Notes under the pieces: generated by a model
What the model saw: only the letters and a program-made list of their open reading frames with translations
Told to the model about the DNA's origin: nothing
Databases searched by the model: none
Part shown: one piece after another, positions 11,118 to 50,650 of the stretch
Layout: every line of letters starts with the position of its first letter
Position numbering within the stretch: the first letter of the stretch is position 1
Source of the DNA: Microthyrium microscopicum
Taxonomy: Eukaryota > Ascomycota > Dothideomycetes > Microthyriales > Microthyriaceae
Direction of reading: 5' to 3'
Length of the DNA stretch: 64,000 nucleotides
NCBI GenBank assembly: GCA_010405405.1
Contig: MU004238.1
Location: 259,530 to 323,529 of the forward strand
Translations under genes and position numbers: made by a program

Positions 11118-11516
11118 GTTGAAGTGGTTTGATACATTAATGATACCCGTAATATGGCGTTATGGACGTTTTAGTCTGGTAATACAAGCTTTCTTTGAAG
11201 TGCATATGCTGTGAGCCACCTAGTTGTCAGATCAATCAACGCACAATAGCTTAATCGACATGCATCGGGATGCTTTTAGAATCACCATGAGCGGATCTGA
11301 TTGATTGAAGTTATTTAGTACACCCCAAACGCGCTTCGGTATCTATCTGACTAGACCCTAACACAAAAAGACTTTCTTTTAATGATTAACTGGTATCTAC
11401 GAGAGATTACTATCCACAAGTTACTTCAACCGCCTCCTATAAATCCAGCATGTTCTCCCTCTACTTTTACTCCAGTCCAAGTTCCATTTCTCAAAACTGT
11501 ATAAATCAGCACGAAG
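11118..11516. other. intergenic leading into array 1
   Basis: This gap holds the GT4 3' end and the promoter of the first array copy. A TATA box (TATAAAT) lies at 11438-11444, 79 bp before that ATG. Confidence 0.5.
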
Positions 11517-11711
11517 ATGTGCTGGGTCTATCAAATTACATACACAGGGTGTGGATGTACCGGCGAAGAGTTCAAGATATGCGATATTGCCAGACTAGAA
11601 GGAACAGAAGCGAAGCGTTGCTGGCGAGAGTATCCAGAGGTCGCTAGAGCGGGTAATTGTCCGTGGCGCCAATGTCCCCGAAGCTCAAGAGATGATGATA
11701 GGGATAGATGA
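11517..11711 (+). CDS. array 1 copy 1, small MC-type cysteine-rich protein
   Basis: It encodes 64 residues in one exon, starting MCWVYQITYTGCGCTG. Cysteines sit at positions 2, 12, 14, 22, 35, 48 and 53. Compared with the array consensus the usual His14 is Cys, and the C-terminal pair is spaced C-x4-C rather than C-x2-C. The segment REYPEVARAGNCP matches copies 46603 (REYPEVAKA) and 45276. The tail is Arg/Asp-rich. No signal peptide is visible. The function is unknown; membership rests on start, Cys spacing and neighbouring copies. Confidence 0.7.
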   Translation: MCWVYQITYTGCGCTGEEFKICDIARLEGTEAKRCWREYPEVARAGNCPWRQCPRSSRDDDRDR

Positions 11712-11989
11712 GCACTGCTATAGCCTGTAGCTTTGGGAGAAGAGTCTAAATTCACTGTGGAGTAGATCATTTGAGCATAAGTGCCTGAGAATTGAAAGCG
11801 TCGATCACATCTTCGACTTTCACATCATTGCTTAACTGCCACTTTGGACTTTGTATATTATATAAGGCCAATCTTACTCCTATATTTCTCAAACATTATA
11901 GCGCCATAGACTATCATACAAGATATTCGGGACTCAGCATACTGATAATATAACACAAGAAATACCATAAGCCACGTATAAGCAACAAC

Positions 11990-12148
11990 ATGTGCTCCAA
12001 ACCCATGGTAACACACATGCTGTGTGGACATAAGACGGAGGAATTCATGCCATGTCAGCGGGCCAAAGACACCGGGCAACTATGTGGCTACACCGAGCGT
12101 GGGGAGATTGCGACTGTGAGTCGTTGCCGTATATGCCGAACGATGTAG
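11990..12148 (+). CDS. array 1 copy 2, small MC-type cysteine-rich protein
   Basis: A 52-residue open frame starts MCSKPMVTHMLCGHKTEEF. It shows the clearest array frame: C2, C12-G-H14, C22, C32, then C46-R-I-C49. It ends three residues after the last Cys. A TATATAAGG element lies about 130 bp upstream. It is intact and intronless. Its spacing from copy 1 is 473 bp, close to the roughly 450-bp unit. It is short enough to be missed by a 60-codon cutoff. The six Cys and one His suggest metal binding, which is inferred. Confidence 0.72.
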   Translation: MCSKPMVTHMLCGHKTEEFMPCQRAKDTGQLCGYTERGEIATVSRCRICRTM

Positions 12149-12916
12149 TAGAGAGGCTTTGTAGGGAAGGATAGTTGCTGGACTCTTTGTGGAGGCTGGA
12201 CAGCTCAGATATGTCAAATCTAGGAACGTAGTGAATCGAAACTTTGATCATATTCTTGGATCTAAAAATGCGGCTGGCGATGTGATGAAAGCAAATGAAC
12301 TGAGGACCCTCACTGTTGATAGGTAGCACGACTCTAATTTGGAGACCACATGATGCAATAGAGAGTTCCCAAGAGAAGCAACAAAATGTAATACGCTGAG
12401 CTGCTCAATTCACTATCAATTTCAGTTGCTAGGCATCAGAATAGACTGTGTTTATCACTGTCGGAAAAACAAGAATATGGTCGTCCGTTACAACATCTAG
12501 TGTCTGACAATATATCGCGTTCACAGAATCAAAAGTCCCAGGTTGCGACCATTTGTTCTAAGAGACAATGTCTCAAATCTCAAACTGTGATCTGTGTCTA
12601 GCATCTGAAACATTATATTTCCGCGCGGCTCACTGAGCGAGAGACTCACGACATCGTGATACATGGATTGAGCGATAGCTTAACGCTTCGCCATAAGATA
12701 AACTAGCAGATCTAGTGGAGAACCTCTGTCTCTACTCTCAGACCTCCCGATAAAGGTACCTTGACAGTGTCAAAAGGTGAGAATGATTGAGAAGTAAAGC
12801 AGGAAAAAAAAGATATAAATACCGTGATTAAATTTACCTTTTAAAATCTTTATCAAACCTTCAGCATACCGGATTATTACCTCCAAAGCCAGCAATAAAC
12901 AGAAGCAACGTCATTC
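12149..12916. other. gap of about two array units, no intact copy
   Basis: Copies 2 and 3 are 927 bp apart, about twice the local unit, so a copy may have been lost near 12450. I looked for a decayed frame and found no convincing relic. The TATA box of copy 3 (TATAAAT) is at 12814-12820. Confidence 0.4.
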
Positions 12917-13072
12917 ATGTGTTTCAAGGAGAAGATCTATTCCTTGATTTGTGGTCATTATTGGTTTGAGTGGAGAGAGTGTGATATTGTGAAAATAGAG
13001 CGCAGGCAATGTGGATGGACTGAACGTCCAGCTGTAGTCGCGCGGATGGTTTATTGTCCGGACTGCCCATAA
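12917..13072 (+). CDS. array 1 copy 3, small MC-type cysteine-rich protein
   Basis: It encodes 51 residues from MCFKEKIYSLICGHYWFEW. Cysteines are at 2, 12, 22, 32, 47 and 50, with His14. The CGWTE segment after Cys32 is shared with the array 2 member at 45696. It ends in CPDCP. The TATA box lies 103 bp upstream. It is intact, intronless and lacks a signal peptide. Other frames overlap it on the opposite strand, but only this frame has the family pattern. Confidence 0.72.
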   Translation: MCFKEKIYSLICGHYWFEWRECDIVKIERRQCGWTERPAVVARMVYCPDCP

Positions 13073-13368
13073 GGACTGTATCATAGGAGTTTTAGGTCTG
13101 GACGATATTTGGAGAGAATGAGACGATGTTGGATTCCATCTTGGTATAGTTCGACAATTACCAATCCCGCCTTGCTCAAGATTCAAAGATCTTCACGACC
13201 TTGTAACTAATTTTTGATCGCTTGGATCGGAACGCACTTTCTCTGACCATGAAGTGAAAAAAGGCGACGCTTATAAAAACGCTCATTGAACGCCCATTTG
13301 ATATCTCTTTTGTGTAAAACCCAATACCAGGCTACCGGAATCAAAGAACAGTGAGATAAACCTTAAAA

Positions 13369-13482
13369 ATGTGCTATCGAATACAGGTTTTCTCCATAGA
13401 TTGTACCCATAGATGGGAGGACTTTGAACCTTGCAACATTGCTAAATCAGGCAGAGCATGTGGTTGGATGGAGATGCCGTAA
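13369..13482 (+). CDS. array 1 copy 4, shortened MC-type protein
   Basis: The frame starts MCYRIQVFSIDCTHRWEDF and keeps C2, C12-T-H14, C22, C31 and GWMEMP, then stops after 37 residues. Downstream DNA still encodes, in another frame, a GICPIC-like terminal pair, so the C-terminal half is lost by a premature stop and a frame change. The stop overlaps GTAAGT at 13478, a perfect donor, so an intron rescuing the end is possible, but I see no convincing acceptor nearby. TATAAAA at 13272-13278 lies 97 bp before the ATG. Confidence 0.5.
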   Translation: MCYRIQVFSIDCTHRWEDFEPCNIAKSGRACGWMEMP

Positions 13483-13814
13483 GTTGCAAGAGTGGATATG
13501 CCCGATCTGTGTTACTGCCCGACGATTGATTGATGGACTGAAAGGGTCTCTGTAGGCCAAATTGATGATGATCTTTCATGATGCAAGTTATAGCACTGAA
13601 TAAGTGAGGCTATCAAGTAAATGCCGCTCATAAGTAGGTTCATCGTCGTAGGCATTTATACGCACCGCTGTGTTTTAGTTTCAGGAGACAGTCAACTGTA
13701 ATTAATGAATTCAAGGCTGCTGGGTATAAATATGTCCTCCGCACAGATATTGAGGTAGTCATCAAAAGCTCAACTACCAAGATATCAAAATCGACAACTT
13801 GATCAAACTCCGCC
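13483..13814. other. spacer with TATA box of copy 5
   Basis: The spacer starts with the decayed tail of copy 4. It contains TATAAAT at 13725-13731, 90 bp before the next ATG, and no other feature I can support. Confidence 0.4.
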
Positions 13815-13988
13815 ATGTGTTTTGAGACAAAGAGACATGCTATCGGGTGTGGCCATTCCTGGACTGAGCGGGAACCCTGCGACATTGCTGAAGCAGGCAA
13901 CGATTGTGAAAATATTGATTTTTGGGAAACAGCAAGAAGCGGCATATGCCCAAAGTGTGTAGAGCGTGGTGGGAACTTTTTCATATAG
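13815..13988 (+). CDS. array 1 copy 5, small MC-type cysteine-rich protein
   Basis: The 57-residue frame starts MCFETKRHAIGCGHSWTER. It has C2, C12-G-H14, C22, C31 and a terminal SGICPKC pair at 45 and 48, followed by a nine-residue tail. A DIAEAG segment after Cys22 matches NIAKSG of copy 4 and QVARAG of copy 8. It is intact. The distance from copy 4 is 446 bp, which fits the 450-bp unit. Confidence 0.72.
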   Translation: MCFETKRHAIGCGHSWTEREPCDIAEAGNDCENIDFWETARSGICPKCVERGGNFFI

Positions 13989-14261
13989 AGTGTGGATGTG
14001 ATACCCATAGATGCTTGTGATCAAGAGTTCTATCTTGAAACTTACAGATACGGGAAACGAGCTGAAACACTATTAATTTCAATTCTACCTAATGCAGTTT
14101 TTGCCTCCGTTCAAATCCAAATCACTTGAATGGTAGAGAGACTTGTATTTACGGTGCCATTGAATAATTAGCCAGATATAAATGCGGCTGTTCAGGCCTT
14201 GTTCTAAACTCTGCTTGCATTTCTCAACTTCAAAGAACCCAATACTCACCTAGGGACAATA

Positions 14262-14429
14262 ATGAGTTGCCAAAGAACTGTAGTATCGACAACCTGCCAC
14301 CATGGGTGAATTAAGAAGGCGCCATGTCAGATTGTGAAAGTTGAAGGCAGATCCGGCAGATGGGAAGCATTTCCAGAATCAGCCAGAATTGAGCTCTGTC
14401 CGCAGTGTATGACAAAGCCCCAGGTCTGA
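14262..14429 (+). pseudogene. array 1 copy 6, decayed MC-type gene
   Basis: The frame begins MSCQRTVVSTTCHHG and aligns without gaps to copy 5. It keeps Cys12, His14, Cys22 and the terminal LCPQC, but one in-frame TGA falls two codons after His14 and the third internal Cys is lost. TATAAAT at 14177-14183 lies 85 bp upstream, so the promoter may still fire. Unit spacing is 447 bp from copy 5 and 459 bp to copy 7. This is a recently inactivated array member. Confidence 0.65.
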
Positions 14430-14623
14430 ACAGATATTTTCTGCCTCATAGGCTAGTCATAACCCGTGTCATCGTAGATGTCAGTTTAATACTCAGTGTA
14501 GTCAAGCAATTGCAGTATCTCATCTATTGATAGTGACATGCTTGAAAGTGCACGGAAGAAAAGAAGACCGAACGGCAGCAGCATACTATAAGAAGAAACA
14601 GTGAAGTCGACGTCTCAAAGAGA

Positions 14624-14630
14624 TATAAAT
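14624..14630 (+). promoter_or_regulatory. TATA box of array 1 copy 7
   Basis: TATAAAT occurs 97 bp before the ATG at 14721. Equivalent boxes precede copies 3, 4, 5, 6 and 8 by 85-103 bp, so this is a conserved core-promoter position in the duplicated unit. Confidence 0.65.
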
Positions 14631-14720
14631 AAAGCCGTTGGGAGCACAGTTCTCATGATTAGTTCGTGCTTAACCTGAACATTGAAAATATAAACCCAGA
14701 ATCTAGACAAACATACGAAT

Positions 14721-14876
14721 ATGTGTTGGAGAGTAACAGTTTATTCCATAGAATGCGGACATCGTTGGGTCAAAAAGGAGCTAGAACCTTGCCGCCCATC
14801 GGCACAGACAACTTATCCCTGTGCTTTGGCTGAATTCAAAGAAGTAGCCAGAGGGGGTTTATGTCCAGACTGCTAG
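14721..14876 (+). CDS. array 1 copy 7, small MC-type cysteine-rich protein
   Basis: The 51-residue frame starts MCWRVTVYSIECGHRWVKK. Cysteines lie at 2, 12, 24, 34, 48 and 51, with His14. Two residues are inserted between His14 and the next Cys. It ends ARGGLCPDC, the array's typical terminal pair. It is intact and intronless, with no visible signal peptide. Confidence 0.72.
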   Translation: MCWRVTVYSIECGHRWVKKELEPCRPSAQTTYPCALAEFKEVARGGLCPDC

Positions 14877-15296
14877 TAGGCGGCTCAATACTTGCATAGG
14901 TAGAGAGAGCATAAGAGATCGGAGCGAGGCCAAACACTAGTTCTTTACGTATATAGGAGCAATTCAATCATAAGAGGCTTTTGAGCCGTTTGAGTTTCAG
15001 GGACGGTGCCAGATGTGATGCTCTAGGTGAAAAGGAGGTCTAGAAGCAACAATTTGTTCTAGAGGTCGTAGGACAATAGATGCCAATCTGACAGTTAAAA
15101 TCATGGAACAACTATAGCGTCTCATTTGGTGATAGCTAACAATTACAAATCCGTATGAAGAAAAGAGAATTGAATATTAATAACTCCTCATGTGGACAGA
15201 GATATAAAGACAAACCATTGGGACCACGTATCTTATGATGTGGCGTGTCAAATCTCACAATTAAAATTATCCCCAACATTCATAACAAATTGAACC
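14877..15296. other. spacer with TATA box of copy 8
   Basis: TATAAAG lies at 15203-15209, 94 bp before the next ATG. The flanking ATATAAAGACAAACCATTGG resembles the copy 7 region (ATATAAATAAAGCCGTTGG), showing that promoter DNA was duplicated. No other gene is seen. Confidence 0.5.
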
Positions 15297-15494
15297 ATGT
15301 GCTGGTACGTATTCGCATTGTTCATAGGGTGCCATCATCGCTATGAGCTGGAGGAACCTTGTCAAGTGGCAAGAGCAGGCCGACGATGTGGTTGGAAGGA
15401 CACCAAAGACGCAGCTAGAGGTGGGATATGTCCTATATGCCAGACGCTATTCAATAATGGAATGGATTGGGAGAGTATGAGCCGCTTTGGCTGA
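15297..15494 (+). CDS. array 1 copy 8, small MC-type cysteine-rich protein
   Basis: The 65-residue frame begins MCWYVFALFIGCHHRYELE. It has C2, C12-H-H14, C22, C31-G-W and the terminal RGGICPIC. A 16-residue extension follows (QTLFNNGMDWESMSRFG). It is the last member of the roughly 450-bp subarray. No signal peptide or intron is evident. Function is unknown. Confidence 0.73.
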   Translation: MCWYVFALFIGCHHRYELEEPCQVARAGRRCGWKDTKDAARGGICPICQTLFNNGMDWESMSRFG

Positions 15495-16394
15495 ATATCA
15501 CATCTGCTCTTACATAGGAGGTTTCCAATCAAATTGGGCCTTTCCAATTGTTCCCAGCACCCAGTCATTGTTCCAGGCCTGAAGGTTCTCCAGAAGAGGA
15601 GAATGAGTAGGAGCCAAAAGCTTTCTTACAGACGTGACTAACCAGGCGACAAGAAGAGAGAGAGAGGCGGGATTATAGTGTTGAAGACGCTATGTGGATT
15701 TAGATTATATTTCAAGTTTCACAGACTACTGAACTGTTATTCAATTAATGTTTCGGCTTTGAAGAGGATTCTCTGGGAGGAAGTAGTCAGATGGTCACTG
15801 CTACACTCGTAGAGGAAATATGGTCTAACACATGACAAATGAAAGGTAATCGTACAAGACCCCTTAATTTATTGCTGCGCTAAGCGCTATCGATATTCGG
15901 TTATATAATTTAAGTTGAGAGGGAACAGAAATACGAGGAATACCGCGTATTCATTTTACTGCGCACTCGAACAGTGGATCATTATCTAGTCCCACGAGTG
16001 ACTAGAAAATGTCATAATAAATATAGTTATCAATCACAAAATACTAAGATATCAAAATGTACCGGAGCTTCTGATCGCTTTCTCGCTAATGATCAGAATC
16101 AACACTACCAACCAAAAGTTCCAGCTGTTCTGATATCGCTCAGTGTCATTGTATAGTGTCCATTTTCTCACCGCCCACTGCTGAACGACAGTCCCAGTTG
16201 TGTGTCAGATGAACATCATCCTGCGCGACCTCTTTACTCATAAAGAGCGTCATTACTGGAACGTTGCTTCACTTCAGTCAAACAACATCATCGGAGCAAT
16301 GTCCCCCAAATCGGTATAAAAAGAGCTGCTTCCACACTTATCGCTGCCTTCATCTCATTATAGACTCAGATCAAGCGCCTCTTCATCAATCAAG
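15495..16394. other. boundary between the two halves of array 1
   Basis: This 900-bp stretch lacks an intact array gene. A TATATAA sequence lies near 15902 with no member behind it. TATAAAA at 16315-16321 serves copy 9, 80 bp downstream. Here the unit length and the subfamily both change. Confidence 0.45.
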
Positions 16395-16547
16395 ATGTGT
16401 AAAGTAACGACCGTCACATTCCTAGACTGCAAACATATTACGATAATCAATGACTATTGCAATGACTGGTATATCGCCCATCGCCTGTGCGATCGCACCA
16501 TCTATGAAGGTGATACCAAACCTGGCAGCTGTGTGAACTGTCCTTAA
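16395..16547 (+). CDS. array 1 copy 9, MCK-subtype cysteine-rich protein
   Basis: The 50-residue frame starts MCKVTTVTFLDCKHITI. Cysteines are at 2, 12, 22, 32, 46 and 49, with His14. It introduces the second subfamily, marked by an MCK start and an LCDRT segment around Cys32 in place of CGW. It ends CVNCP. The frame is intact, and an opposite-strand frame covers it. Its LCDRTI block is nearly identical to copy 18, showing recent duplication within the subfamily. Confidence 0.72.
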   Translation: MCKVTTVTFLDCKHITIINDYCNDWYIAHRLCDRTIYEGDTKPGSCVNCP

Positions 16548-16730
16548 GAGCGGGAGGTGAAGACTTTGAAAGTCACGATAGAAGTATAACTCAAAACGGG
16601 CAGATGTAACAGAAAGCCTTTCAAAGTTGAGTATAAATATGAGCCTAAGGTCTAATCCCACGTTTATCTTTTTCCTGTTTGTCTCACTCCAGAACCCCCT
16701 ATCCAACTTCTAAAGCTCTTTCTAAGTAAG

Positions 16731-16934
16731 ATGTGCAAAGTTCTCTGGGTCATAGGCTACGACTGTGGACACTCAACCACTGAAAGTCAATACTGTAATA
16801 ACGACTTGTTCGGTAATTGCTTATGTGACAGAGTAGTTACCTTCCAAAAAGTTTCCCGCACTGGGAGATGTACTAGCACTTGTACAGGGAAAGGTTGGTT
16901 AGCAGATACGAAATACGAGCCAGTGTGGAAGTGA
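16731..16934 (+). CDS. array 1 copy 10, MCK-subtype cysteine-rich protein
   Basis: The 67-residue frame starts MCKVLWVIGYDCGHSTTES. It has C2, C12-G-H14, C22, a Cys at 30, C32-D-R, and C47 and C51 near the end (RCTSTC). An 18-residue basic tail follows. Copies 10, 11 and 12 are mutually closest. Spacing is 336 bp from copy 9. TATAAAT is at 16632-16638. Confidence 0.72.
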   Translation: MCKVLWVIGYDCGHSTTESQYCNNDLFGNCLCDRVVTFQKVSRTGRCTSTCTGKGWLADTKYEPVWK

Positions 16935-17076
16935 ACTCGTGGGAAGCAAATGCATTTATGTAACATAGCAATACTCAAAGCAGGTATAAAGGTAGCCTAG
17001 TCTATACCTTCCTATCCTCCTCCTCTTCGTTTCGCTGAATACTTCCAACCAACTCTCAAAAATCGCTCTAACCAAG

Positions 17077-17256
17077 ATGTGCAAAATTCTCTATGTCACG
17101 ATTTACAGCTGTGGACACTCAATTTCTGAAAGTAAATACTGCAATGATAAGCTCACGGGAAATTGTTTATGCGAAAATGTTCTTACCATCAAAGAAATTT
17201 ACCGTTTTAATAGGTGTGCTAGTACTTGTACTACCTCTTGGGCGGCAGGTACATGA
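17077..17256 (+). CDS. array 1 copy 11, MCK-subtype cysteine-rich protein
   Basis: The 59-residue frame starts MCKILYVTIYSCGHSISES. It is a near twin of copy 10 (shared GHS, YCN, GNCLC and RCASTC). The Cys at 30, 32, 47 and 51 are conserved in the pair. A short TTSWAAGT tail ends it. TATAAAG lies 92 bp before the ATG. It is intact and intronless, and just under 60 codons. Confidence 0.72.
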   Translation: MCKILYVTIYSCGHSISESKYCNDKLTGNCLCENVLTIKEIYRFNRCASTCTTSWAAGT

Positions 17257-17342
17257 AACCCCTTGGTAATTCGCGACAGCGTGATATGCAACTCCTGGAG
17301 ATTATATGTAATTATGTAGCATAGCAAATACCGAAGATTGGG

Positions 17343-17349
17343 TATAAAA
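17343..17349 (+). promoter_or_regulatory. TATA box of array 1 copy 12
   Basis: GGTATAAAAGAAAGCC lies 91 bp before the ATG at 17434. The same core followed by a GCC/ATCC stretch precedes copies 11, 13, 16 and 18 at 91-94 bp. Confidence 0.65.
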
Positions 17350-17433
17350 GAAAGCCTATTTTATGACTCCCTATCCTCTTTACCTTTGCCTCAGCCAATA
17401 TTTCCATCTGAGCTTTCTGAAAATCGCTCTGAA

Positions 17434-17607
17434 ATGTGCAAAGTTCTCTACGTTACGTTCTACTGCTGTGGACACTCTAGTACTCACACAAAATACTTTA
17501 AGGACGAGTTCGTCGCAGACTGCTTATGCAATAATGTTATCATATTCCAAGAACTCTACAGCCACGACAATTGTATCACTTGTGTTACTGAGCACCTACC
17601 TAGGTAG
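17434..17607 (+). CDS. array 1 copy 12, MCK-subtype cysteine-rich protein
   Basis: The 57-residue frame starts MCKVLYVTFYCCGHSSTHT. It keeps C2, C12-G-H14, C30, C32 and a terminal CITC, but residue 22 is Phe instead of Cys, a missing key position. An in-frame ATG upstream at 17338 translates the TATA region and was not chosen, because all siblings start at MCK. The unit after this copy is stretched to 570 bp. Confidence 0.68.
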   Translation: MCKVLYVTFYCCGHSSTHTKYFKDEFVADCLCNNVIIFQELYSHDNCITCVTEHLPR

Positions 17608-17679
17608 CCAAGGGAAGAAACTTGGGTTTTCGCAGGAACATGGTGTTTAATAAGTCTCTATTGCATATATCGTTCTCAG

Positions 17680-17823
17680 CAAGATGGCAAGTTCCATGAC
17701 GAGAACAGCAAGTTGCGTAACGAAATCATCCGCTTGAAGGACAAGGAAATCAAGCGACTTAAGGAGGAGAATGATCAACCGAAGAAAGAGTCGGCTTTCT
17801 TGTCATTTCTATTTTCCGAGTAG
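17680..17823 (+). other. orphan coiled-coil coding fragment inside array 1
   Basis: After a good acceptor-like TTCTCAG, an open frame of 47 codons ends in TAG. It contains alternating Leu/Ile and charged residues (KLRNEIIRLKDKEIKRLKEE), a short coiled coil, and ends SFLFSE. It does not resemble the array proteins. It sits where the spacing between copies 12 and 13 jumps from about 340 to 570 bp. It could be a 3' exon of copy 12, although the phase from copy 12 does not fit, or a captured exon fragment. Confidence 0.35.
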
Positions 17824-18003
17824 GGCAGTCACAGACTTTACTCACTACTATAGTCTATCACAAGACAATATCAATACATTGGGCACCAAAAGTGTCCTAC
17901 CACCATGGGCATAAAAGCGATCCTATTTTGCCCATGGCTTTTCAATGTTCGTCTCACTCTATACATCGAATCAAGCGTCCTAAAAACTGTCTTATCAAAC
18001 GAT

Positions 18004-18159
18004 ATGTGCAAGACTCTCTACACCACACACTGGTTCTGCGGACACATCAGTACTGAAATGAGGCACTGCGAGGGGACGCATAATGCGACCTGTTTCCATG
18101 ATTATACCTATTATGAAGAAATCTTCCATCTAGTTTTCAAGTGTCCGGGTTGTTCTTAG
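18004..18159 (+). CDS. array 1 copy 13, MCK-subtype cysteine-rich protein
   Basis: The 51-residue frame starts MCKTLYTTHWFCGHISTEM. Cysteines are at 2, 12, 22, 30, 47 and 50, with His14. It ends KCPGCS. A longer in-frame start at 17905 would add 33 residues translated from the CATAAAA promoter element, and is judged spurious because other copies have stops there. The frame is intact. Confidence 0.7.
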   Translation: MCKTLYTTHWFCGHISTEMRHCEGTHNATCFHDYTYYEEIFHLVFKCPGCS

Positions 18160-18346
18160 ATGTCGGAAGATGGAAACGTAGTAGCTTGTCACAATTGAAC
18201 ATTTGGTTTGAAAAGGAACCAAGGTGATGAAGTCATATTCCCATAATCAATTGCAAAAGGAACTCTGATTCACATCTCTCTTCTTTGCGGCCGGACCGGT
18301 TTCTACATTCAGTCAAAAGGCTCAAAGATGTATCACGGTAATAAAG

Positions 18347-18502
18347 ATGTGCAAAGTCGTTTGGACAACGTTGGCGTCTGGATATGTTTCATGTTCTCAC
18401 CAATATTATAAAAATTGGGATATTGAGCGCCATTCATGTGCCAACACCATTTAGGAAGAAACTAGGATCTGTGGCTCCTGCGAAGCCTGTGGTCCGAAAT
18501 AA
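18347..18502 (+). pseudogene. array 1 copy 14, decayed MCK-subtype gene
   Basis: The frame starts MCKVVWTTLASGYVSCSH. It keeps a C-x-H pair and a downstream CANTI, then has one in-frame stop (codon 36), after which the same frame continues to a CGSCEAC terminal cluster and a stop. The usual promoter TATA box is not recognisable 90 bp upstream. One inactivating stop plus a lost promoter indicates a dead copy. Confidence 0.6.
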
Positions 18503-18658
18503 GTAGGGAAAGGCATTATCACACTTGGGCTGTTTGTAGCGATTAGAAATGGTACATCGCTGTAAACGTGACCGATATATATCCAAAAGTTAGGTGTAAA
18601 GATAAACATGACTTGCTCTTGAACTTTTCACATTCGTCTTGCTCATAACAATTTTTCA

Positions 18659-18772
18659 ATGTGATGTATCTACTGTACTACCACCAAGTTTCTAGGCTCC
18701 GAACATGTGTCAATCGACAGGTCATATTGTCAATGCCACATCGTACGTAGCTTGAGTGTCCGCATAAAATAG
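18659..18772 (+). pseudogene. array 1 copy 15, heavily decayed relic
   Basis: The frame from 18659 reads ATG then a stop, then Cys and TTTKFLGSEHVSIDRSYC, which aligns with TTVTFLDCKHITIINDYC of copy 9 without gaps. Cys12 is replaced by Ser. The C-terminal half is lost. The upstream element is GTGTAAAG instead of GTATAAAG. It sits 312 bp after copy 14, matching the period. Confidence 0.55.
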
Positions 18773-18999
18773 AATTCCATCACAAGCGCTGGAAGCTATA
18801 CATCTTGTCCTGTTTTGCCATGGAAAGCTCATGAGAAGCCATAACAGTGATCTGCTTGAAGAAAAAAGAAACTTTGGAAGGCATGGGCTCTGATATCACC
18901 TGAGAATTCCTAATTTTCAGGCCTAAACATCACCCTATGTACATGGGCTTGTGCTGAATCACTTGCATACGTGGTGAAGCAATTATCCCCAAAATCAGG

Positions 19000-19006
19000 T
19001 ATAAAA
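19000..19006 (+). promoter_or_regulatory. TATA box of array 1 copy 16
   Basis: AAAATCAGGTATAAAA precedes the ATG of copy 16 by 91 bp. The same string recurs before copy 19, and AAATCGGTATAAAA before copy 9. A CCCTTCGTCTCA motif in the leader is shared with copies 17 and 18. Confidence 0.7.
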
Positions 19007-19090
19007 GCAAGCCCAATCCACACCTTCTTGCTGGCCCTTCGTCTCACACCCAAAAACCTATCATACAACCTAAAGATTGCCTTACTCAAC

Positions 19091-19243
19091 ATGTGTAAAG
19101 TCACTGATGTCTCATGGATGGAATGTCCCCATACCAGGCGTGACTATGATTACTGCGATGAAGGAAAAGCCAATGACGCCCTGTGCGATCAGACGACAAT
19201 TCATAAAGTGAAATGCAACGGTGCCTGTATCTTATGTGCTTAA
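19091..19243 (+). CDS. array 1 copy 16, MCK-subtype cysteine-rich protein
   Basis: The 50-residue frame starts MCKVTDVSWMECPHTRRDY. It has C2, C12-P-H14, C22, C32-D-Q, then C42, C46 and C49 near the end (CNGACILCA). It is closest to copies 17 and 18, sharing YCDEGK or its variants after Cys22. Upstream in-frame codons translate promoter sequence and were excluded. The frame is intact. Confidence 0.73.
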   Translation: MCKVTDVSWMECPHTRRDYDYCDEGKANDALCDQTTIHKVKCNGACILCA

Positions 19244-19424
19244 GGCAAGGGAACAATTGGGTTCGTAAGAGCTGAAAATCACCTGAGGTCGTAAGTGATG
19301 AAGTAGTATGGTATTTAGGTACAAGAATGAACTCAGTCCACATCTGTTGTTTTTGACCCTTCGTCTCACGATCAACATTCTATCATACATACCTACTTAC
19401 TTCTAAAGAAATGCCTAAATCAAT

Positions 19425-19577
19425 ATGTGTAAAGTCGTTAGGATCACATGGATGTACTGCACCCAAACCGTAGAGGAGTGTACATTTTGCGACGAAGGAA
19501 AAATTCTGGAAGTTCTATGCTCTGTAACCATCGTCCAAGAAGTCATCCGTCCGGCCTTCTGTAAGTGTTGTTGGTAA
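19425..19577 (+). CDS. array 1 copy 17, MCK-subtype protein lacking the His
   Basis: The 50-residue frame starts MCKVVRITWMYCTQTVEEC. It keeps C2, C12, C22 and C32, but the conserved His14 is Gln, and an extra Cys appears at 19. It ends FCKCCW. The upstream element reads TTAGGTACAAGAATG, a damaged TATA box, so expression may be weak. The coding frame is still open. Confidence 0.6.
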   Translation: MCKVVRITWMYCTQTVEECTFCDEGKILEVLCSVTIVQEVIRPAFCKCCW

Positions 19578-19659
19578 GAGAGTGAAATATCTGAGCTTGT
19601 AGTAATTGAAGATATTAACTTGAAAACAAAAGTGATGAAGTAATATGTCCAAAATTAAG

Positions 19660-19666
19660 TATAAAA
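19660..19666 (+). promoter_or_regulatory. TATA box of array 1 copy 18
   Basis: AAGTATAAAAGCCAGCC lies 92 bp before the ATG at 19752, the standard array position. CCCTTCGTCTCA follows in the leader. Confidence 0.65.
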
Positions 19667-19751
19667 GCCAGCCTAGTCCACGTCTTTCTTCTGCCCCTTC
19701 GTCTCAACATCAATATTCTATTCTACATCTTCAAAGGTCGCCTTATTCAAC

Positions 19752-19934
19752 ATGTGTAAAGTAATTACCTCCAAATTCATGAACTGCCCACATGTCATAG
19801 TTGACACTACGTATTGCGATGTTGGTAAACTCATTGCCCACCTGTGCGATCGCACCATCTTCGAAGATGAGACCCGTCTAAACTGTTGTCAGTACTGGGA
19901 CGGCTGTTGTTCATCCTGTAGAGCTAAAAAATGA
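19752..19934 (+). CDS. array 1 copy 18, MCK-subtype cysteine-rich protein
   Basis: The 60-residue frame starts MCKVITSKFMNCPHVIVDT. It has C2, C12-P-H14, C22 and C32-D-R-T-I. The C terminus is enriched in Cys (NCCQYW, then CCSSC) with a basic RAKK tail, so it has several more Cys than its siblings. It is intact and intronless, 327 bp after copy 17. Confidence 0.73.
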   Translation: MCKVITSKFMNCPHVIVDTTYCDVGKLIAHLCDRTIFEDETRLNCCQYWDGCCSSCRAKK

Positions 19935-20117
19935 GAGAAGAGACCATAATAGTTCTTAATAATTGAGATTTCAGCCTGGAAGCAAACGTAGCAAAGTAAT
20001 CTCCCCAAAATCAGGTATAAAAATGAACTCAATCAACGTCTTTGTCCTGCTGCTTCGCCTTACCCCAAAAAATTTCTCAAATATCCAAAAGATCGCCTGA
20101 CTGGTTTGTGTTTGAAC

Positions 20118-20290
20118 ATGTGTTCTTATCTACCGATATAAAGACTGCTCACATGTCACAGTTGACCATGGATATTGCGATGATTGGTATGTGGTTCGCC
20201 GTCTATGTGAAAAAAAAAACCCTTCCAACAACACACCAAGGCAAGCCACTGTGTGTCCATTCGGTGTCCATGTGCCGTCATCCCATTATC
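20118..20290 (+). pseudogene. array 1 copy 19, decayed terminal relic
   Basis: An ATGTGT start is followed by a frame change. A second frame then reads DCSHVTVDHGYCDDWYVV and RRLCEKK, which aligns to copies 9 and 18. An A-run near 20212 follows the Cys32 equivalent and the terminal pair is not in frame. TATAAAA at 20016-20022 is intact. This is the last recognisable unit, abutting the next gene's 3' end. Confidence 0.55.
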
Positions 20291-38414: not shown

Positions 38415-39961
38415 ATGGCGATCAAGATTGCGCGGTCTACGAGATTATCTATTGCCATCGGAATCTCCTTCTCTTTCTTCCTTGTAGAAATTGCTAGTAA
38501 GTTTGAACTTTTCTCAACCCAGGCTTGTCGCGCCAAGCACACAATGTTCTTCACTGTTTTGAAAGCTTGAAAGGAAAAAAAGTTCTGCATGAGCAAGGTT
38601 CTTCGATGTACCTGCAGAAGATTAGACTTTTCTAGGACATGTGCATTATCGTAATCTTTGACATTCACTGTATTCCTTATATCCACTCGCTGCTGTTCTT
38701 GATCTATCTTTCAGGGTCTTCATACTAACGACATCTAGTTGGCTTCAAAACCCATTCGATCGCATTGATCGCCGATGCATTTCACTACCTCAATGATCTA
38801 ATAGGCTTCATTGTTGCTTTGGTTGCTGTCCTCATATCGGAAAATGGCAGAGCTCACAAGGATCTTACCTATGGTTGGCAGCGAGCTCAATTGCTCGGCG
38901 CTTTCTTCAATGGTGTCTTCTTACTCGCGCTTGGAGTCAGTATCTTCCTTCAATCAATTGAACGATTCATCACTCTCCAAGTGATCGACAACCCCAAACT
39001 GGTCGTTATTGTCGGCTCCATTGGCTTATTCTTGAACATCATCAGTATGATGTTTCTTCATGAGCATGATCATGGAGACGGCCACTCTCATGGCCATAGC
39101 CATGGGGACGAAGAGCATTCGCATGGACACTCACATAGCCATGACCACGATGTTGAGCATAGTCATGGCCATAGCCACAGCCATAGCCATACCCCTGGTC
39201 ATAAACATCGTCATTCTCAGCCAGGGGATATCCCGCTCACGATTCCATCAACTGTGGATGTTAACCATATCGACACGGACATCATGTCAGAAACCTCTGT
39301 GCTACCAGATAAGGAAAAGGATCACAAGGAACATCGTCACAAGCTATTCGCCAAGTCTCAAAAAGGCCACTCCCATCACGACTATGGCATGGCCGGCGTT
39401 CTCCTCCATCTTGCCGGCGACGCATTCAACAACATAGGGGTCATTATCGCCGGTATCATCATCTGGAAGACAAGCTCACCTCACCGCTACTACGCAGATC
39501 CAGCAGTCAGCATGGCAATCGCCATCATGATTCTCCTCTCCTCCCTTCCACTCGTCAAAAAAACAGGGCACATCCTCCTACAAAGCCCTCCGACTGGTCT
39601 AGACGTAGACGACATCAAGCACGACCTCGAGGCGATTCCTGGCATTAAGAGTGTCCACGAACTCCACGTCTGGCGCCTAAACCAACAAAAGAGTCTCGCA
39701 TCAGCACATGTCATTCTCGAAGATCCATCATTACATAACTTCCAGGAAGGCCAAGCCAAGACTATGGCGGAATGCCTACATGCCTATGGAATCCATTCTG
39801 TAACCATCCAGCCAGAGCTAAGAGCTAGACGGCCAGTCATTGCTACACATCCCAGCACTGAAGCTGGTGCTCAAACGACGGCGACTGATCCAGATCAACC
39901 GCCTAGTCCATGCCAACTGAACTGCGGCACGAATTGCGAGAAGATGACTTGTTGTGGTTAG
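38415..39961 (+). CDS. ZRC1: vacuolar zinc/cation diffusion facilitator (Zrc1/Cot1-like)
   Basis: Exon 1 (38415-38496) and exon 2 (38739-39961) join to 434 residues. Six membrane segments fit the CDF family. Metal-site residues are H and D in ADAFHYLNDLIGF (segment 2) and in HLAGDAFNNIGV (segment 5). Between segments 4 and 5 lies a loop with a long His-rich tract (GHSHGHSHGDEEHSHGHSH and more). The cytosolic C-terminal domain follows (SVHELHVWRLNQQKSLASAHV). It ends in CGTNCEKMTCCG, a Cys-rich tail. Known members move Zn2+ out of the cytosol into the vacuole in exchange for protons. Confidence 0.92.
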
Positions 39962-45129: not shown

Positions 45130-45276
45130 CTAACCTTTTGCCACAGACCCACAAATCCCAGGTCGAGCTATATTGGGATATTCCCGTCAGTCACAATAAC
45201 CCGTATCGATGCAAGGTCTAGGCTCAACATCTGTATGGCCGCACTCAGTGTATTCAGCATCGTATTTCCAAAACAA
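45130..45276 (-). pseudogene. array 2 copy 1, decayed MC-type relic
   Basis: The minus-strand frame reads LFWKYDAEYTECGHTDVE from a TTG in place of ATG, with Phe for Cys2. Cys12, His14, Cys22 and GYCD follow. A stop replaces the Trp of the CGW motif, then REYPNIARPGICGS shows the terminal pair broken to Cys and Ser. It aligns without gaps to copy 2 of this array, 420 bp away. Confidence 0.6.
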
Positions 45277-45540
45277 CTACTTCGGTGAGCAATTTTTGGT
45301 AGTAGGGGTAAGTGATCATGACAGAAGCTTTAAATCTGCGAAGAGGCAGCCAATCCATGTTTTTCGAATCTGCATTACTAGAGACTTTTACAAATTATTG
45401 AACATCTTTACATAGCCCAGAGGTGAAGGGATAAAAAGACTGGTCTTTATGTTAATAGGTTGCAGTCAGATCATGTGAATGTTCGATTCTGTGATGCATG
45501 TCCCCTTTCTTCTATGCACCAGATTATGCAGAAATGTATT

Positions 45541-45696
45541 TCAACAGCCGAATATTGCATCTCCGCATGGACGGCAGTATCCCACTTTCGATATCTGAGG
45601 ATATTCCGTCCATCCGCAAGGCCCTCCAGGACATGGCTTGTCCTCAACGATGGTGTGGAAGCAGTCAGTGTAATAGATATGATATTTGTAGCACAT
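45541..45696 (-). CDS. array 2 copy 2, small MC-type cysteine-rich protein
   Basis: The 51-residue frame starts MCYKYHIYYTDCFHTIVED. It has C2, C12-F-H14, C22, C27-G-W, C41 and C44, and ends in C51. The CGWTEYP segment matches array 1 copy 3 (CGWTERP). An upstream in-frame Met 99 bp earlier would add a hydrophobic stretch, but siblings start at MC. It is intact. Confidence 0.7.
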   Translation of the reverse strand: MCYKYHIYYTDCFHTIVEDKPCPGGPCGWTEYPQISKVGYCRPCGDAIFGC

Positions 45697-45992
45697 TTTG
45701 TCCTGATTCAAGCAATATTTGGTGTTCTTGAACGGTGAGAATGACAACAATAGGCAGAAAGCAGCCCAGAAATCAGTCCAGAAAGAAGGTTTCATATGCT
45801 ACCAACACCTGGCAGTGATGTTAGCTCGATGACGTCTCTCCCATCCATATTGACCTCAGCGGGTTATATAAATCGCCCCTAAACATGTACTTCAGGTACT
45901 ATCACTATCACCGCTCAGAATTCCTAGACAGATCCCTCATCAGCTAATGTTAATTTATCATGAGGGGGGTACGAATTGGTTAAAGCTCTTAC

Positions 45993-46151
45993 CTACTGTC
46001 CCTGAACCATCTTGTCGAAACATGGCCTGCAAATTCCTGGCTTTGCTATTTGTGGTTCATCTTGATAGCCACAAGGTGACTTCTCGCATGGTCTCTTTTC
46101 AATGAGGGTATGCCGGCAATCGATGTAATAAACGTGATATCTTTTGCACAT
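45993..46151 (-). CDS. array 2 copy 3, small MC-type cysteine-rich protein
   Basis: The 52-residue frame starts MCKRYHVYYIDCRHTLIEK and ends FDKMVQGQ. It shows C2, C12-R-H14, C22, C27-G-Y and a terminal CRPC at 41 and 44, and is the closest relative of copy 2. It is intact and intronless. It is easily missed because it is below 60 codons. Spacing to copies 2 and 4 is 455 and 452 bp. Confidence 0.72.
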   Translation of the reverse strand: MCKRYHVYYIDCRHTLIEKRPCEKSPCGYQDEPQIAKPGICRPCFDKMVQGQ

Positions 46152-46435
46152 CTTGATTTCAATTCTGGTTGGATGTTGTATGTACGGGGCGTAGGTCTTT
46201 AAAGATGCATCTCGGATTTTCAGGGGCTTGGAAAAGCCGTCTTTATTGTTGGTTTCGACGAGTGAACATGTCGAATCACTTCACGTTTAGTATCTGGGTA
46301 TTGCTAGTTACTGTAGTAGCCATTCTCCTTGCGTTGCTATGAGCTTTGAATGAGTTTTCATGTCACTAAATAATCCATCTTATACTCAAAGTAAATTAGA
46401 GAATTCTTCATGATTGCTCACTAAGCCATATCCTG

Positions 46436-46603
46436 TCACAGCCCAAGTTGTCTGCAAATTCTACAACGTTTGGCTTTAGCCACTTCTGGATATTCACGAA
46501 CATCGCAAGCATTCCTCCCATATTGTCGGGCGCGATCGCATAGTCTAAACTTTCTCTTGGTATGACCACAACTTGTATAGTAGATGGTCTTATTCGTACA
46601 CAT
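46436..46603 (-). CDS. array 2 copy 4, small MC-type cysteine-rich protein
   Basis: The 55-residue frame starts MCTNKTIYYTSCGHTKRKF. It has C2, C12-G-H14, C22, C33, C47 and C50 (CRIC). The REYPEVAKA block matches array 1 copy 1 (REYPEVARA), linking the two arrays. A longer frame in another phase overlaps it but lacks any family mark. TATAAAA lies 92 bp upstream. Confidence 0.73.
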   Translation of the reverse strand: MCTNKTIYYTSCGHTKRKFRLCDRARQYGRNACDVREYPEVAKAKRCRICRQLGL

Positions 46604-46688
46604 ATTTCGTTACTTTTATGATGATAGTCTTGATTGAAATTCTGTGTTGGCTCTAGAAAGAAAAGCTTAGAAACGCAGCATAGTAGGC

Positions 46689-46695
46689 TTTTATA
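46689..46695 (-). promoter_or_regulatory. TATA box of array 2 copy 4
   Basis: GCGGGTATAAAAGCC on the minus strand lies 92 bp before the ATG at 46603. The position and GGTATAAAAGC context match array 1 copies 12 and 16. Confidence 0.65.
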
Positions 46696-46843
46696 CCCGC
46701 TCAATCAAGAAGACAAAATATTGTACGGTGATGTCGCAGTAGAGAGTTATACCTCTCAATAATCAGAGCAAGAAGATTTCCTCAGACCCAGTTTGAAAGT
46801 AATCGCCGTGGTGGTGGTCAACTGGCTAACATGGAATCACTGC

Positions 46844-47038
46844 TTATGCTTCAGCATCCGATTCTTCATTTTCATCCTCCATTTCACAGTATGGGCATAA
46901 AGAATCGCTCGTGACCTCCTCCTCCAGGTGCTGGAAATAGATGCAATCCGCAGCTAGATCCCCAGCATAGTCACATATATCGTAACTTGGACACATATGG
47001 CTGCATTGCGTGTACAATACTTCAGCGAATGTACACAT
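46844..47038 (-). CDS. array 2 copy 5, small MC-type protein with acidic tail
   Basis: The 64-residue frame starts MCTFAEVLYTQCSHMCPSY. Cysteines lie at 2, 12, 16, 22, 32, 47 and 50, with His14. The terminal CPYC is followed by an acidic tail (EMEDENEESDAEA). An in-frame Met at 47275 would add 79 residues that translate the leader and a TATATATATA tract; I reject that start. It is intact. Confidence 0.7.
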   Translation of the reverse strand: MCTFAEVLYTQCSHMCPSYDICDYAGDLAADCIYFQHLEEEVTSDSLCPYCEMEDENEESDAEA

Positions 47039-47398
47039 GGTAGCTTCGTTACTGTACGAGGATAAGCAGTGTTGCTGGGAGTTAGTGGGATAAGAATTCC
47101 AAAGATGATAGTGGTAAATCGGAATGTTTGAAGGATAGTAATCAGAAGATGGGTGGACCGGGAGGTATATATATATGGGAGTAATATGGCAGTGAAGTTT
47201 GTCATCAGAGACCAGGAAGATGCGGTTGTTGTTACATTTGGAAAGACGCATTGTGACAACCTTTTTTTCCGGCATGTATTTATTGATTACCTAGTCTTCT
47301 ATTTGCATCATTGTTTACTTCTGCGCGATCTATAATAACTTCACGGGTCAAATTCATCCAGTCTCCGAAATCTTTTCGTGATTAAGTGCCTGAAGAGA

Positions 47399-47596
47399 TT
47401 AATTCCATGAGTTATTCACATCGTCCATCCATCTTTCGACCCGAGTGACACATCCTGAACAAATGCCCGTCTTAACTTGAGGATCATAGTCTAGAGTAGG
47501 ACAATGCTGACCGAGAATGTTGGCAACAGGACACGGTCTGATCTCTTGCGTCTTGTGTTTGCAGTCGTGGTAAGTTGTCACAACGTTCCAGCACAT
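47399..47596 (-). CDS. array 2 copy 6, small MC-type cysteine-rich protein
   Basis: The 65-residue frame starts MCWNVVTTYHDCKHKTQEI. It has C2, C12-K-H14, C22, C32 and the terminal TGICSGC pair at 46 and 49, then a 16-residue polar tail. It is nearest to array 1 copy 8 in start and layout. TATATAAA lies 89 bp upstream. It is intact. Confidence 0.73.
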   Translation of the reverse strand: MCWNVVTTYHDCKHKTQEIRPCPVANILGQHCPTLDYDPQVKTGICSGCVTRVERWMDDVNNSWN

Positions 47597-47677
47597 TCTG
47601 AGCAGATTAGGTCAATATTATTAGGAGAAGGATTCTTTTCTGTATTCTAAAAGCCTTTCCTATGAACATACGTTTGC

Positions 47678-47685
47678 TTTATATA
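47678..47685 (-). promoter_or_regulatory. TATA box of array 2 copy 6
   Basis: TATATAAA on the minus strand lies 89 bp before the start at 47596, the standard array spacing. Confidence 0.6.
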
Positions 47686-48003
47686 GAATTAGCAATTGAG
47701 AGCTCAGTGACGCAGCTATAATGTAAGACTGCGCTCGACATAACATTCCCAGACTGTAGGTATAACAGCAAATCAGGATTTAATAAAGTATGAAAGAAGC
47801 TAATCCTGTACGCTCGGAATGATTACCGGGTGTCTTTCAGACAATCCAAAGGGCCATTCCATTTCAACTTGTGACCCCGGAAACACATAGGAGCCGTCAT
47901 TTCTCATCACCAACACAGGCCGGAGGAATATGCATGAACAATTGTCTCCCGCTCTTGAGATTTAAAATAAAGACATCTCAGGTCCTTTTGGTAATCCCAA
48001 GAG

Positions 48004-48213
48004 TCATGCTTCTTTTGCTTCTGGCACAATATCATCTCCTCTAGGCACCGGACACTTGGTACACCAGCCATCCACAGAGGTTGGATTTCCGCTCCAAGCT
48101 CGTAGGGGCGTACATATCTTTCTGGTTTTCCAATAGAGCAGACAGCCAAAGAAGTTAACTCGATCTTGAATATGCGAGCATCTGAGGTAGCGCACGGCTT
48201 CTCGGCGACACAT
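48004..48213 (-). CDS. array 2 copy 7, divergent MC-type protein
   Basis: The 69-residue frame starts MCRREAVRYLRCSHIQDRV. It has C2, C12-S-H14, C24, C34 and a terminal CTKC at 51 and 54, then a 15-residue acidic tail. Insertions between Cys positions make it less typical. An upstream Met adds 20 unrelated residues and was not used. It is intact. Confidence 0.65.
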   Translation of the reverse strand: MCRREAVRYLRCSHIQDRVNFFGCLLYWKTRKICTPLRAWSGNPTSVDGWCTKCPVPRGDDIVPEAKEA

Positions 48214-48963: not shown

Positions 48964-49233
48964 ATGTGCCGTGTTATTCGACGCGTCTGCCCTAGCGGCC
49001 ACCACTGGTACGTGCCAACCGAACCGGTGTGCAAGCAAAAGGAGGCCACTGGCAAGTTTGGCAAAGAATGTCCCTGGGAGGAAGTTCTAGTGCTCACTAC
49101 AGAACTACATAATGCGGAAAGTTGCCCACAATGTCACCCGACTCGTGGCGTCTTACGAGAAGGAGTACGAAAGATTCTCACGCGCTCCTCACACGCCCAA
49201 AACTCGAATGCCATTCAGCAGATGATCTTATGA
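48964..49233 (+). CDS. array 2 copy 8, divergent plus-strand MC-type protein
   Basis: The 89-residue frame starts MCRVIRRVCPSGHHWYVPT. Cysteines are at 2, 9, 23, 36, 53 and 56, with His13 and His14. The CPWEE segment corresponds to CGWxE and the terminal CPQC to the usual pair. A C-terminal extension of 33 residues is basic and Ser-rich. It is the only plus-strand member here and the most divergent. An earlier in-frame Met at 48832 translates low-complexity leader and was not chosen. Confidence 0.62.
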   Translation: MCRVIRRVCPSGHHWYVPTEPVCKQKEATGKFGKECPWEEVLVLTTELHNAESCPQCHPTRGVLREGVRKILTRSSHAQNSNAIQQMIL

Positions 49234-50650
49234 TCCAAACTGCTTCTTGAAGGATCTGGAAATCAGGACCGAAGGCAACTTTCAGCAACAATGACTACTC
49301 TAAGCTTCATGGGGACTTTTTCTAATCCACCAACTGAATCAATGATATGATTACTCACACGAACGGAGCATGTTGTTCTCGGCCATGGAATATATATATA
49401 TACAGTACTAGGACAAAGGTTTGAGCTAGCTGTGCTTACACCACTAAAACTGACCTTTTTGCTAGCCTATTTATAAGAAATTTAGTTAAGTAAGTATAGT
49501 TGAAAATCATTATAATAGTAATTTATAACCTAAGGAACAATATATATAAGTTATATAGTTAAAGAAAAATAATTTAATAGTGAGTAACTACTTAAAGTTT
49601 GCTAATTTCTAAAAAGTTGATTTTCTCTAATAAAAGTACAAAAAAATAGTGCTTACTAATTTTCTTAGTCTTTATATCTTATTATTTTAGCTAATATTAT
49701 ACCTATACCTTTAAAACTTATATATAATAAGAATAAGAATATAAAGAATATATAGTAAAGTTTTTAGATATAGTTACTTAACTAACTTTTTTAGAATCTT
49801 TATTCTAAAAAGAGGTAGGTATTTTACTTATATTCTTAATTACTTAGCGAACTATGGCTATTTTTCTTTTAGAACTTAACATAAGGTAGAGAAGTGTATA
49901 ACTTGAATATATAATTACGAAAACCTAATTAAATAGGTACTGTTGTGGAATAATAGGCTTTATTATATTGATTGAGATATAACTAGCTTAAACCTTTGTC
50001 CCGTAACTGTACGTCCTGAACTCGTGGTTGGCAAATATCCAGGAATTTTGTCCATCCCAATCACATTTTGTATTCTATTGAACAATCTATACCAGTGATT
50101 CTCTTGATGAGGTTTCCTTCTAGGTTAACTGACCATCTGACTACATGTTTTACAGTCTGCACTTGCTCCGATACAAAGAACAGGAAAGGACCTTCGTATT
50201 TCTTTCCACCAAGGAGCAGATAGTACTGAGAAATCGGGGTCCGGTTTCCTGATCTTCACCAGCAGATTATCGCTCTATACCTTTTTTTAGAGAGCCATTG
50301 ACAGGAGAAAAGTAGGATTGCTGCCTCAAAACAAGATACAAGAGGACGAGAAAGTGGCTTATTTTCTAGCATACTCGATGGAAAATAAAACGCTCGATTC
50401 AAACGTAATAGATGACAGCCAGCGAAGTCCATGGGAGCATAGCTCTTTTGCTGTTGCAACACTTTGAAGACAAGCGCACGACAAGGCTGAAAATCCAAGC
50501 AGTTGATTGGCTATTACCCCCACCATACTACCTGCCAGTACCTCTAATTCCAAAAATTGTCGACATCAACTCTTCCCCAAGCCTTCTACACTGCCCAAGA
50601 ATCGATTCTCCCAAACGCTTCGCCACCTAGCAGTGTTCGCTCGATCCACA
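49234..50650. other. gene-free interval including the AT-rich block
   Basis: It holds the array 2 end, the AT-rich block (49430-49970) and the RRM gene promoter. No gene was recognised. Confidence 0.45.
49430..49970. repeat. extremely AT-rich block, probably decayed repeat
   Basis: About 540 bp are dominated by TATA, TTAA and AATA runs with few G or C, in sharp contrast to both sides, and all frames are closed. It looks like the outcome of repeat-induced C-to-T mutation or an AT island. No element ends or coding parts can be recognised, so no family is named. Confidence 0.5.

What the first reader, a model, noticed from the sequence alone, without database searches (positions are those of the whole stretch)
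11517..20290. Array 1: nineteen tandem copies of a tiny MC-x-C-x-H cysteine-rich gene family
Seen: nineteen plus-strand units share an ATG-TGY start (Met-Cys), Cys12-x-His14, Cys22, another Cys near 31-32 and a terminal Cys-x2-Cys in about 50-65 residues. Fourteen are open over the family frame, one is shortened (13369) and four are decayed. I know no named family with exactly this frame, though short uncharacterised fungal proteins of similar look exist. Inferred: a rapidly duplicating, possibly metal-binding intracellular family with lineage-specific expansion.
Basis: partly seen in the sequence, partly recalled or inferred. Interest (0 to 1): 0.9.

Follow-up and report, generated by a model that had tools for sequence, protein, structure and literature searches.

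The report
Tandem family of tiny cysteine-histidine proteins
A fungus-like chromosome segment carries nineteen side-by-side copies, plus eight more elsewhere in the window, of a tiny gene that evolution keeps intact mainly at its cysteines and one histidine, which suggests small metal-binding proteins that work inside the cell and belong to no catalogued family I could search.

Summary
Array 1 (11517-20290, + strand) holds 19 units: 14 intact, one truncated (13369), four decayed (14262, 18347, 18659, 20118). Seven relatives lie on the - strand at 45.1-48.2 kb (six intact, one decayed) and one on the + strand at 48964. A profile from array 1 alone finds the main array-2 members (E 3e-13 to 4e-9), and the reverse search works.

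The genes are under selection. Codon-model omega is 0.33, or 0.44 without the Cys/His/Met columns; omega = 1 is rejected. Cys/His codons show 37 synonymous against 6 nonsynonymous changes. Fifteen of 19 copies have a TATA box 79-103 nt upstream.

Array 1 is really two subarrays with different unit lengths (about 450 and 340 bp).

No Pfam, NCBIfam or PDB family is hit convincingly. No fungal collection was available, so wider distribution is untested.

Best reading: short intracellular proteins folded around zinc bound by C12-x-H14 and the terminal Cx2C, kept by birth-and-death duplication. Selection and promoters are shown; metal binding is inferred. A secreted effector and a CUP1-like dosage array fit worse. 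Expression and function are untested.

The parts
11517..11711 (+). intact copy 1 (64 aa; H14 replaced by C)
   Evidence: ORF; HMM 61.8 bits
11990..12148 (+). intact copy 2 (52 aa)
12917..13072 (+). intact copy 3 (51 aa)
13369..13482 (+). truncated copy 4 (37 aa; C-terminal WICPICV continues in another frame)
13815..13988 (+). intact copy 5 (57 aa), protein used for the fold prediction
14262..14429 (+). decayed copy 6 (in-frame TGA; second codon is not Cys)
14721..14876 (+). intact copy 7 (51 aa)
15297..15494 (+). intact copy 8 (65 aa), last unit of the left subarray
16395..16547 (+). intact copy 9 (50 aa), first unit of the MCK right subarray
16731..16934 (+). intact copy 10 (67 aa)
17077..17256 (+). 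intact copy 11 (59 aa)
17434..17607 (+). intact copy 12 (57 aa; C22 replaced by F)
18004..18159 (+). intact copy 13 (51 aa; C32 replaced by H)
18347..18502 (+). decayed copy 14 (in-frame stop)
18659..18820 (+). decayed copy 15 (TGA at codon 2, further stops; end approximate)
19091..19243 (+). intact copy 16 (50 aa)
19425..19577 (+). intact copy 17 (50 aa; H14 replaced by Q)
19752..19934 (+). intact copy 18 (60 aa, 9 Cys)
20118..20290 (+). decayed copy 19 (frameshift; end approximate)
48004..48213 (-). array 2 copy (69 aa), divergent
47399..47596 (-). array 2 copy (65 aa)
46844..47038 (-). array 2 copy (64 aa)
46436..46603 (-). array 2 copy (55 aa), E 3e-13 to the array-1 profile
45993..46151 (-). 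array 2 copy (52 aa)
45541..45696 (-). array 2 copy (51 aa)
45130..45278 (-). array 2 decayed copy (start lost, stop, last Cys lost; limits approximate)
48964..49233 (+). lone divergent family member (89 aa) on the opposite strand to array 2
11438..11443 (+). TATA box of copy 1, an example; others start at about 12814, 13272, 13725, 14177, 14624, 15203, 16315, 16632, 16985, 17343, 18576, 19000, 19660, 20016
   Evidence: 15 of 19 copies, 79-103 nt before ATG, against 13% of random positions

Best explanation
The finding is a family of real protein-coding genes, each an intronless unit with its own TATA promoter and a short 5' leader. Each encodes a 50-69 residue intracellular protein (89 in the lone copy at 48964) that probably folds as a small beta-rich module around structural zinc. 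C12-x-H14, in the turn of a beta hairpin, and the terminal C-x2-C, at the start of a short helix, would form one site; C2 (the N-terminal residue once Met is removed), C22 and C31/32 would add a second site or metal-sensitive thiols. Unequal crossing-over makes tandem copies, ligands are held by purifying selection while the surface drifts, and some copies die (birth and death). The diversified surfaces most likely serve as protein- or nucleic-acid-binding adaptors. Shown: coding-type selection, TATA boxes at a fixed distance, lack of a signal peptide in the sequence, copy birth and death. Inferred: zinc binding, fold, the adaptor role, expression.
For: Reciprocal profile detection between the two arrays. 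Omega 0.325, or 0.444 without Cys/His/Met columns; twice the log-likelihood gain over omega = 1 is 108-114 and 39-40. Cys/His columns have 37 synonymous against 6 nonsynonymous changes; other columns 84 against 576; every conserved Cys uses both TGT and TGC. Third codon positions differ most in all groups. TATA in 15 of 19 copies at -79 to -103 against a 13% background (binomial for 14 of 19 is 3e-9), which leaves little room for an upstream signal-peptide exon and intron. Hydropathy of the first 30 residues is low in most copies. Of five departures at the Cys/His columns, two are Cys/His swaps, each needing two base changes. Model: strands 2-9, 15-20 and 34-41, helices 23-26 and 46-51, mean pLDDT 78.
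Against: pTM is only 0.49, and the single-sequence fold of array-2 copy 46603 gives a different, low-confidence result. No PDB chain matches well: best Foldseek E 0.45, best VIA Z 3.4. The modal six cysteines also suit three disulfides. No transcript or peptide evidence. Intact copies were chosen for openness, so omega is somewhat biased downward. The adaptor role has no direct evidence.
Confidence: 0.55

Rival explanations
1. Metallothionein-like metal buffer: the tandem copies provide dosage, as with the CUP1 array of Saccharomyces cerevisiae, and the proteins chelate excess Cu, Cd or Zn.
For: Small, Cys-bearing, tandem, no signal peptide. A cation-efflux (zinc transporter) gene lies at 38.7-40.0 kb, about 5.6 kb from the intact part of array 2. 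CUP1 amplification gives copper resistance (PMC11631397).
Against: Only 6-9 Cys per 50-69 residues, 2-9 aromatic residues per copy, a conserved His, no Pfam metallothionein model hit. Copies share only 21-41% identity with the reference copy, unlike a dosage array kept alike. Selection also acts outside the Cys columns.
Confidence: 0.15
2. Secreted disulfide-rich peptides (effectors or antimicrobial peptides) released without a classical signal peptide.
For: Small, modal six Cys, diverse surfaces, clustered; such families are typical of small secreted proteins (general knowledge).
Against: No signal peptide and, given the TATA position, little room for an exon that supplies one. His14 conserved and Cys/His swaps tolerated, which disulfides do not explain. 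Seven copies have seven Cys and one has nine.
Confidence: 0.12
3. A conflict or self/non-self recognition system inside the cell, in which diversified copies bind varied partners such as alleles, viral or transposon products.
For: Birth and death, strong divergence between paralogues, nonsynonymous change concentrated outside the ligands.
Against: No linked executor gene was recognised among the ten neighbouring ORFs scanned; average omega outside ligands is below 1; no population data.
Confidence: 0.12
4. Non-coding or dead repeat: a decayed minisatellite or transposon whose ORFs are accidental.
For: Five of 19 units are broken; no expression data.
Against: Omega far below 1, mostly synonymous change at Cys codons, TATA at a fixed distance; no RIP signature over the arrays (composite index -0.48 and -0.65).
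Confidence: 0.03

Closest known systems
One-domain zinc finger micro-proteins (under 70 aa) as studied in Haloferax volcanii (PMC6562870)
   Same: Free-standing proteins of one tiny putative zinc module, with no larger host protein
   Different: Sequence homology was not tested; here there is C-x-H plus one Cx2C, and tandem arrays of units with their own TATA boxes
Treble-clef zinc fingers (core described in PMC4999995)
   Same: Two ligands in a knuckle-like turn and two at the N-terminus of a helix
   Different: Knuckle is C-x-H, not CPxCG; the model has a single strand, not a hairpin, between the CxH-bearing hairpin and the helix; no solved structure matches
CUP1-type fungal metallothionein arrays
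   Same: Tandem array of a short Cys-bearing intracellular protein
   Different: Fewer Cys, aromatic residues, conserved His, highly divergent copies, no Pfam match
Short fungal proteins beginning MC with a CGH motif, deposited as hypothetical proteins (own recollection, a lead only)
   Same: Similar look: MC start, C-x-H, terminal Cx2C
   Different: Could not be compared: no fungal proteome was searchable here

Membership tests
Treble-clef zinc finger | knuckle with two ligands, then beta hairpin, then helix with two ligands at its N-terminus | tested here: inconclusive
   Ligand placement fits (CxH at 12-14 in a turn, Cx2C at helix 46-51) but only one strand lies between the CxH hairpin and the helix, pTM 0.49, and no structural match
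Treble-clef zinc finger | zinc bound tetrahedrally | not testable with these tools
   No metal can be modelled and no assay run
Metallothionein (Pfam models) | match to a Pfam metallothionein profile | tested here: not met
   21 members against Pfam-A at E up to 1: none
Metallothionein | very high Cys content in CxC/CxxC clusters, few or no aromatics | tested here: not met
   6-9 Cys, 2-9 aromatic residues per copy
Secreted small cysteine-rich protein | N-terminal signal peptide | tested here: not met
   No hydrophobic leader in most copies by a hydropathy scan; TATA box 79-103 nt upstream leaves little room for another exon; no dedicated predictor was run
Any Pfam-A or NCBIfam family | score above the curated cut-off | tested here: not met
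   Pfam: best E 0.009 for one member (DUF508), zf-AD 0.029 for one member, all 21 scanned; NCBIfam: none for the ten scanned
Wider fungal MC-CxH family | homologues in other fungal genomes | not testable with these tools
   No fungal collection; viral and bacterial contigs gave no credible relative

The most novel reading that the evidence does not exclude
An undescribed, expanding family of intracellular one-module metal proteins in which the N-terminal Cys exposed after Met removal is itself an invariant metal ligand or sensor, and whose diversified copies act as an intracellular recognition repertoire.
Probability: 0.12. Interest if true: 0.8.

Novelty: new variant of a known kind. Interest (0 to 1): 0.5.

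Why it matters
Genes this short are easily missed by annotation, and this window alone holds 21 intact ones outside every profile library searched. If they are zinc micro-proteins, they give a ready test set for how a metal site fixes a fold while everything else drifts, and for why an intracellular protein family needs so many divergent copies.

Tried and rejected
Whole-genome search: no genome is held for this window. Viral contigs: pattern hits only, no relative. Bacterial genomes: two hits (L001, L002), judged chance on reading the DNA, as neither shows the family's ATG-TGY start and full Cys/His pattern. Plasmids: none. PDB by profile: best E 0.11, Spp1 PHD finger, chance level. Foldseek PDB and BFVD: nothing at E up to 0.001; weak rows include the Zn(Cys)4 domain of PerR/Fur and short ribosomal proteins. 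PHROGs: one member only, E 4e-5 to an unnamed family, not followed. Papers: nine searches found no description of the family; the one candidate paper concerns clusters of secreted proteins. RIP as the cause of decay: index negative over the arrays. tRNA and Rfam: none. Extra copies in the gaps of the arrays: none by tblastn. Pairwise dN/dS was saturated for most pairs, so codon-model likelihood was used; three scripts on the way failed or lacked values.

Full report
Observation. The nineteen units are real. Fourteen open ATG-TGY ORFs, one shortened and four decayed ones lie between 11517 and 20290 on the + strand. A profile made only from the fourteen intact ones picks out array-2 members in the six-frame translation of the whole window (46603 at E 3e-13, 47596 at 2e-11, 46151 and 45696 near 1e-9); a profile of five array-2 members picks out array-1 copies in return (11990 at 1.6e-14, 15297 at 1.6e-12). 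Ten shuffles of the array regions reach at most 11 bits, against 42-67 bits for the intact copies with the all-copy profile. With array 2 (six intact, one decayed) and the lone + strand member at 48964, the window holds 27 copies, 21 of them intact.

Anatomy. The shared frame is M-C-x9-C-x-H-x7-C-x8/9-C-x13-C-x2-C. In 21 intact copies M1, C2, C45 and C48 never vary and C12, H14, C22 and C31 are kept in at least 90%. Array 1 consists of two subarrays: spacings of mostly 446-473 bp on the left (one gap of 927, about two units) and mostly 312-366 bp on the right, with 1098 bp between. The left half resembles array 2 more than it resembles the right half: the array-2 profile scores left intact copies at 31-51 bits and right ones at 9-26 bits or not at all. 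The right half is thus a divergent subfamily, not just younger copies.

Genes, not debris. A codon model gives omega 0.325 over all columns and 0.444 with Met, Cys and His columns removed. Fixing omega at 1 costs 54-57 log units in the first case and 19-20 in the second. The two subfamilies show the same separately (0.449 right, 0.270 left). On the protein tree the Cys/His columns need 37 synonymous and 6 nonsynonymous changes, other columns 84 and 576. The columns were picked because they are conserved, so the contrast with other columns is partly circular; the number of synonymous changes is not, as it shows that enough time has passed for change. Intact copies were selected for openness, which lowers omega somewhat. 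Third positions differ most in each group.

Promoters and location. Fifteen of 19 array-1 copies have TATAWA (14 TATAAA) 79-103 nt before the ATG; 13% of random positions in the same region have one at that range. With a start about 30 nt after the TATA box (general knowledge), 50-70 nt remain before the ATG, too little for a signal-peptide exon and an intron. The upstream 100 nt of right-hand copies are about 56% identical, similar to the coding part, so whole transcription units were duplicated. No copy has a convincing hydrophobic leader (copy 15297 comes nearest). The products should therefore be intracellular.

Fold and metal. AlphaFold2 with the 21-member alignment gives strands 2-9, 15-20 and 34-41 and helices 23-26 and 46-51 at mean pLDDT 78 but pTM 0.49. 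In this model C12-x-H14 sits in the turn between two strands and C45-x2-C48 at the start of the last helix, the places where small zinc folds carry ligands (treble-clef definition in PMC4999995). It does not meet the treble-clef order fully. An array-2 copy folded without an alignment gives a poor, different model, and no solved or viral structure matches convincingly. Support for metal over disulfides comes from His14 and from two Cys/His swaps (H14C in 11517, C32H in 18004), each a two-base change. Zinc binding therefore stays an inference.

Known families. Pfam, NCBIfam and PDB by sequence give nothing above chance or cut-off. I recall short fungal hypothetical proteins of the same look, but no fungal collection could be searched, so neither 'lineage-specific' nor 'widespread' is tested. 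Nine literature searches found no description.

Verdict. An authentic, selected, uncharacterised family of tiny, probably intracellular Cys/His proteins in birth-and-death arrays. The most likely mechanism is a one-module zinc-stabilised adaptor; buffer, secreted and recognition readings remain open with lower weight.

Noticed in passing
window 45130-48213 (-) and 48964-49233 (+): Second array and a lone member of the same family; the lone one faces the other way and is the longest (89 aa).
   Followed up: yes
window 17656-17823 (+): Frame without ATG reading QQDGKFHDENSKLRNEIIRLKDKEIKRLKEENDQPKKESAFLSFLFSE-stop, coiled-coil-like, between copies 17434 and 18004, where the spacing is about 215 bp longer than usual; perhaps a gene relic.
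   Followed up: partly
window 49000-50000: AT-rich stretch (33% GC) with RIP-like dinucleotide index (+0.4 to +0.5) directly beside array 2, likely a RIP-mutated transposon remnant.
   Followed up: partly
window 38729-39961 (+): Cation-efflux family (zinc transporter) gene about 5.6 kb from the intact part of array 2.
   Followed up: partly
window 11517-11711 and 18004-18159 (+): Cys/His swaps at conserved positions (H14 to C; C32 to H), as expected of metal ligands.
   Followed up: partly
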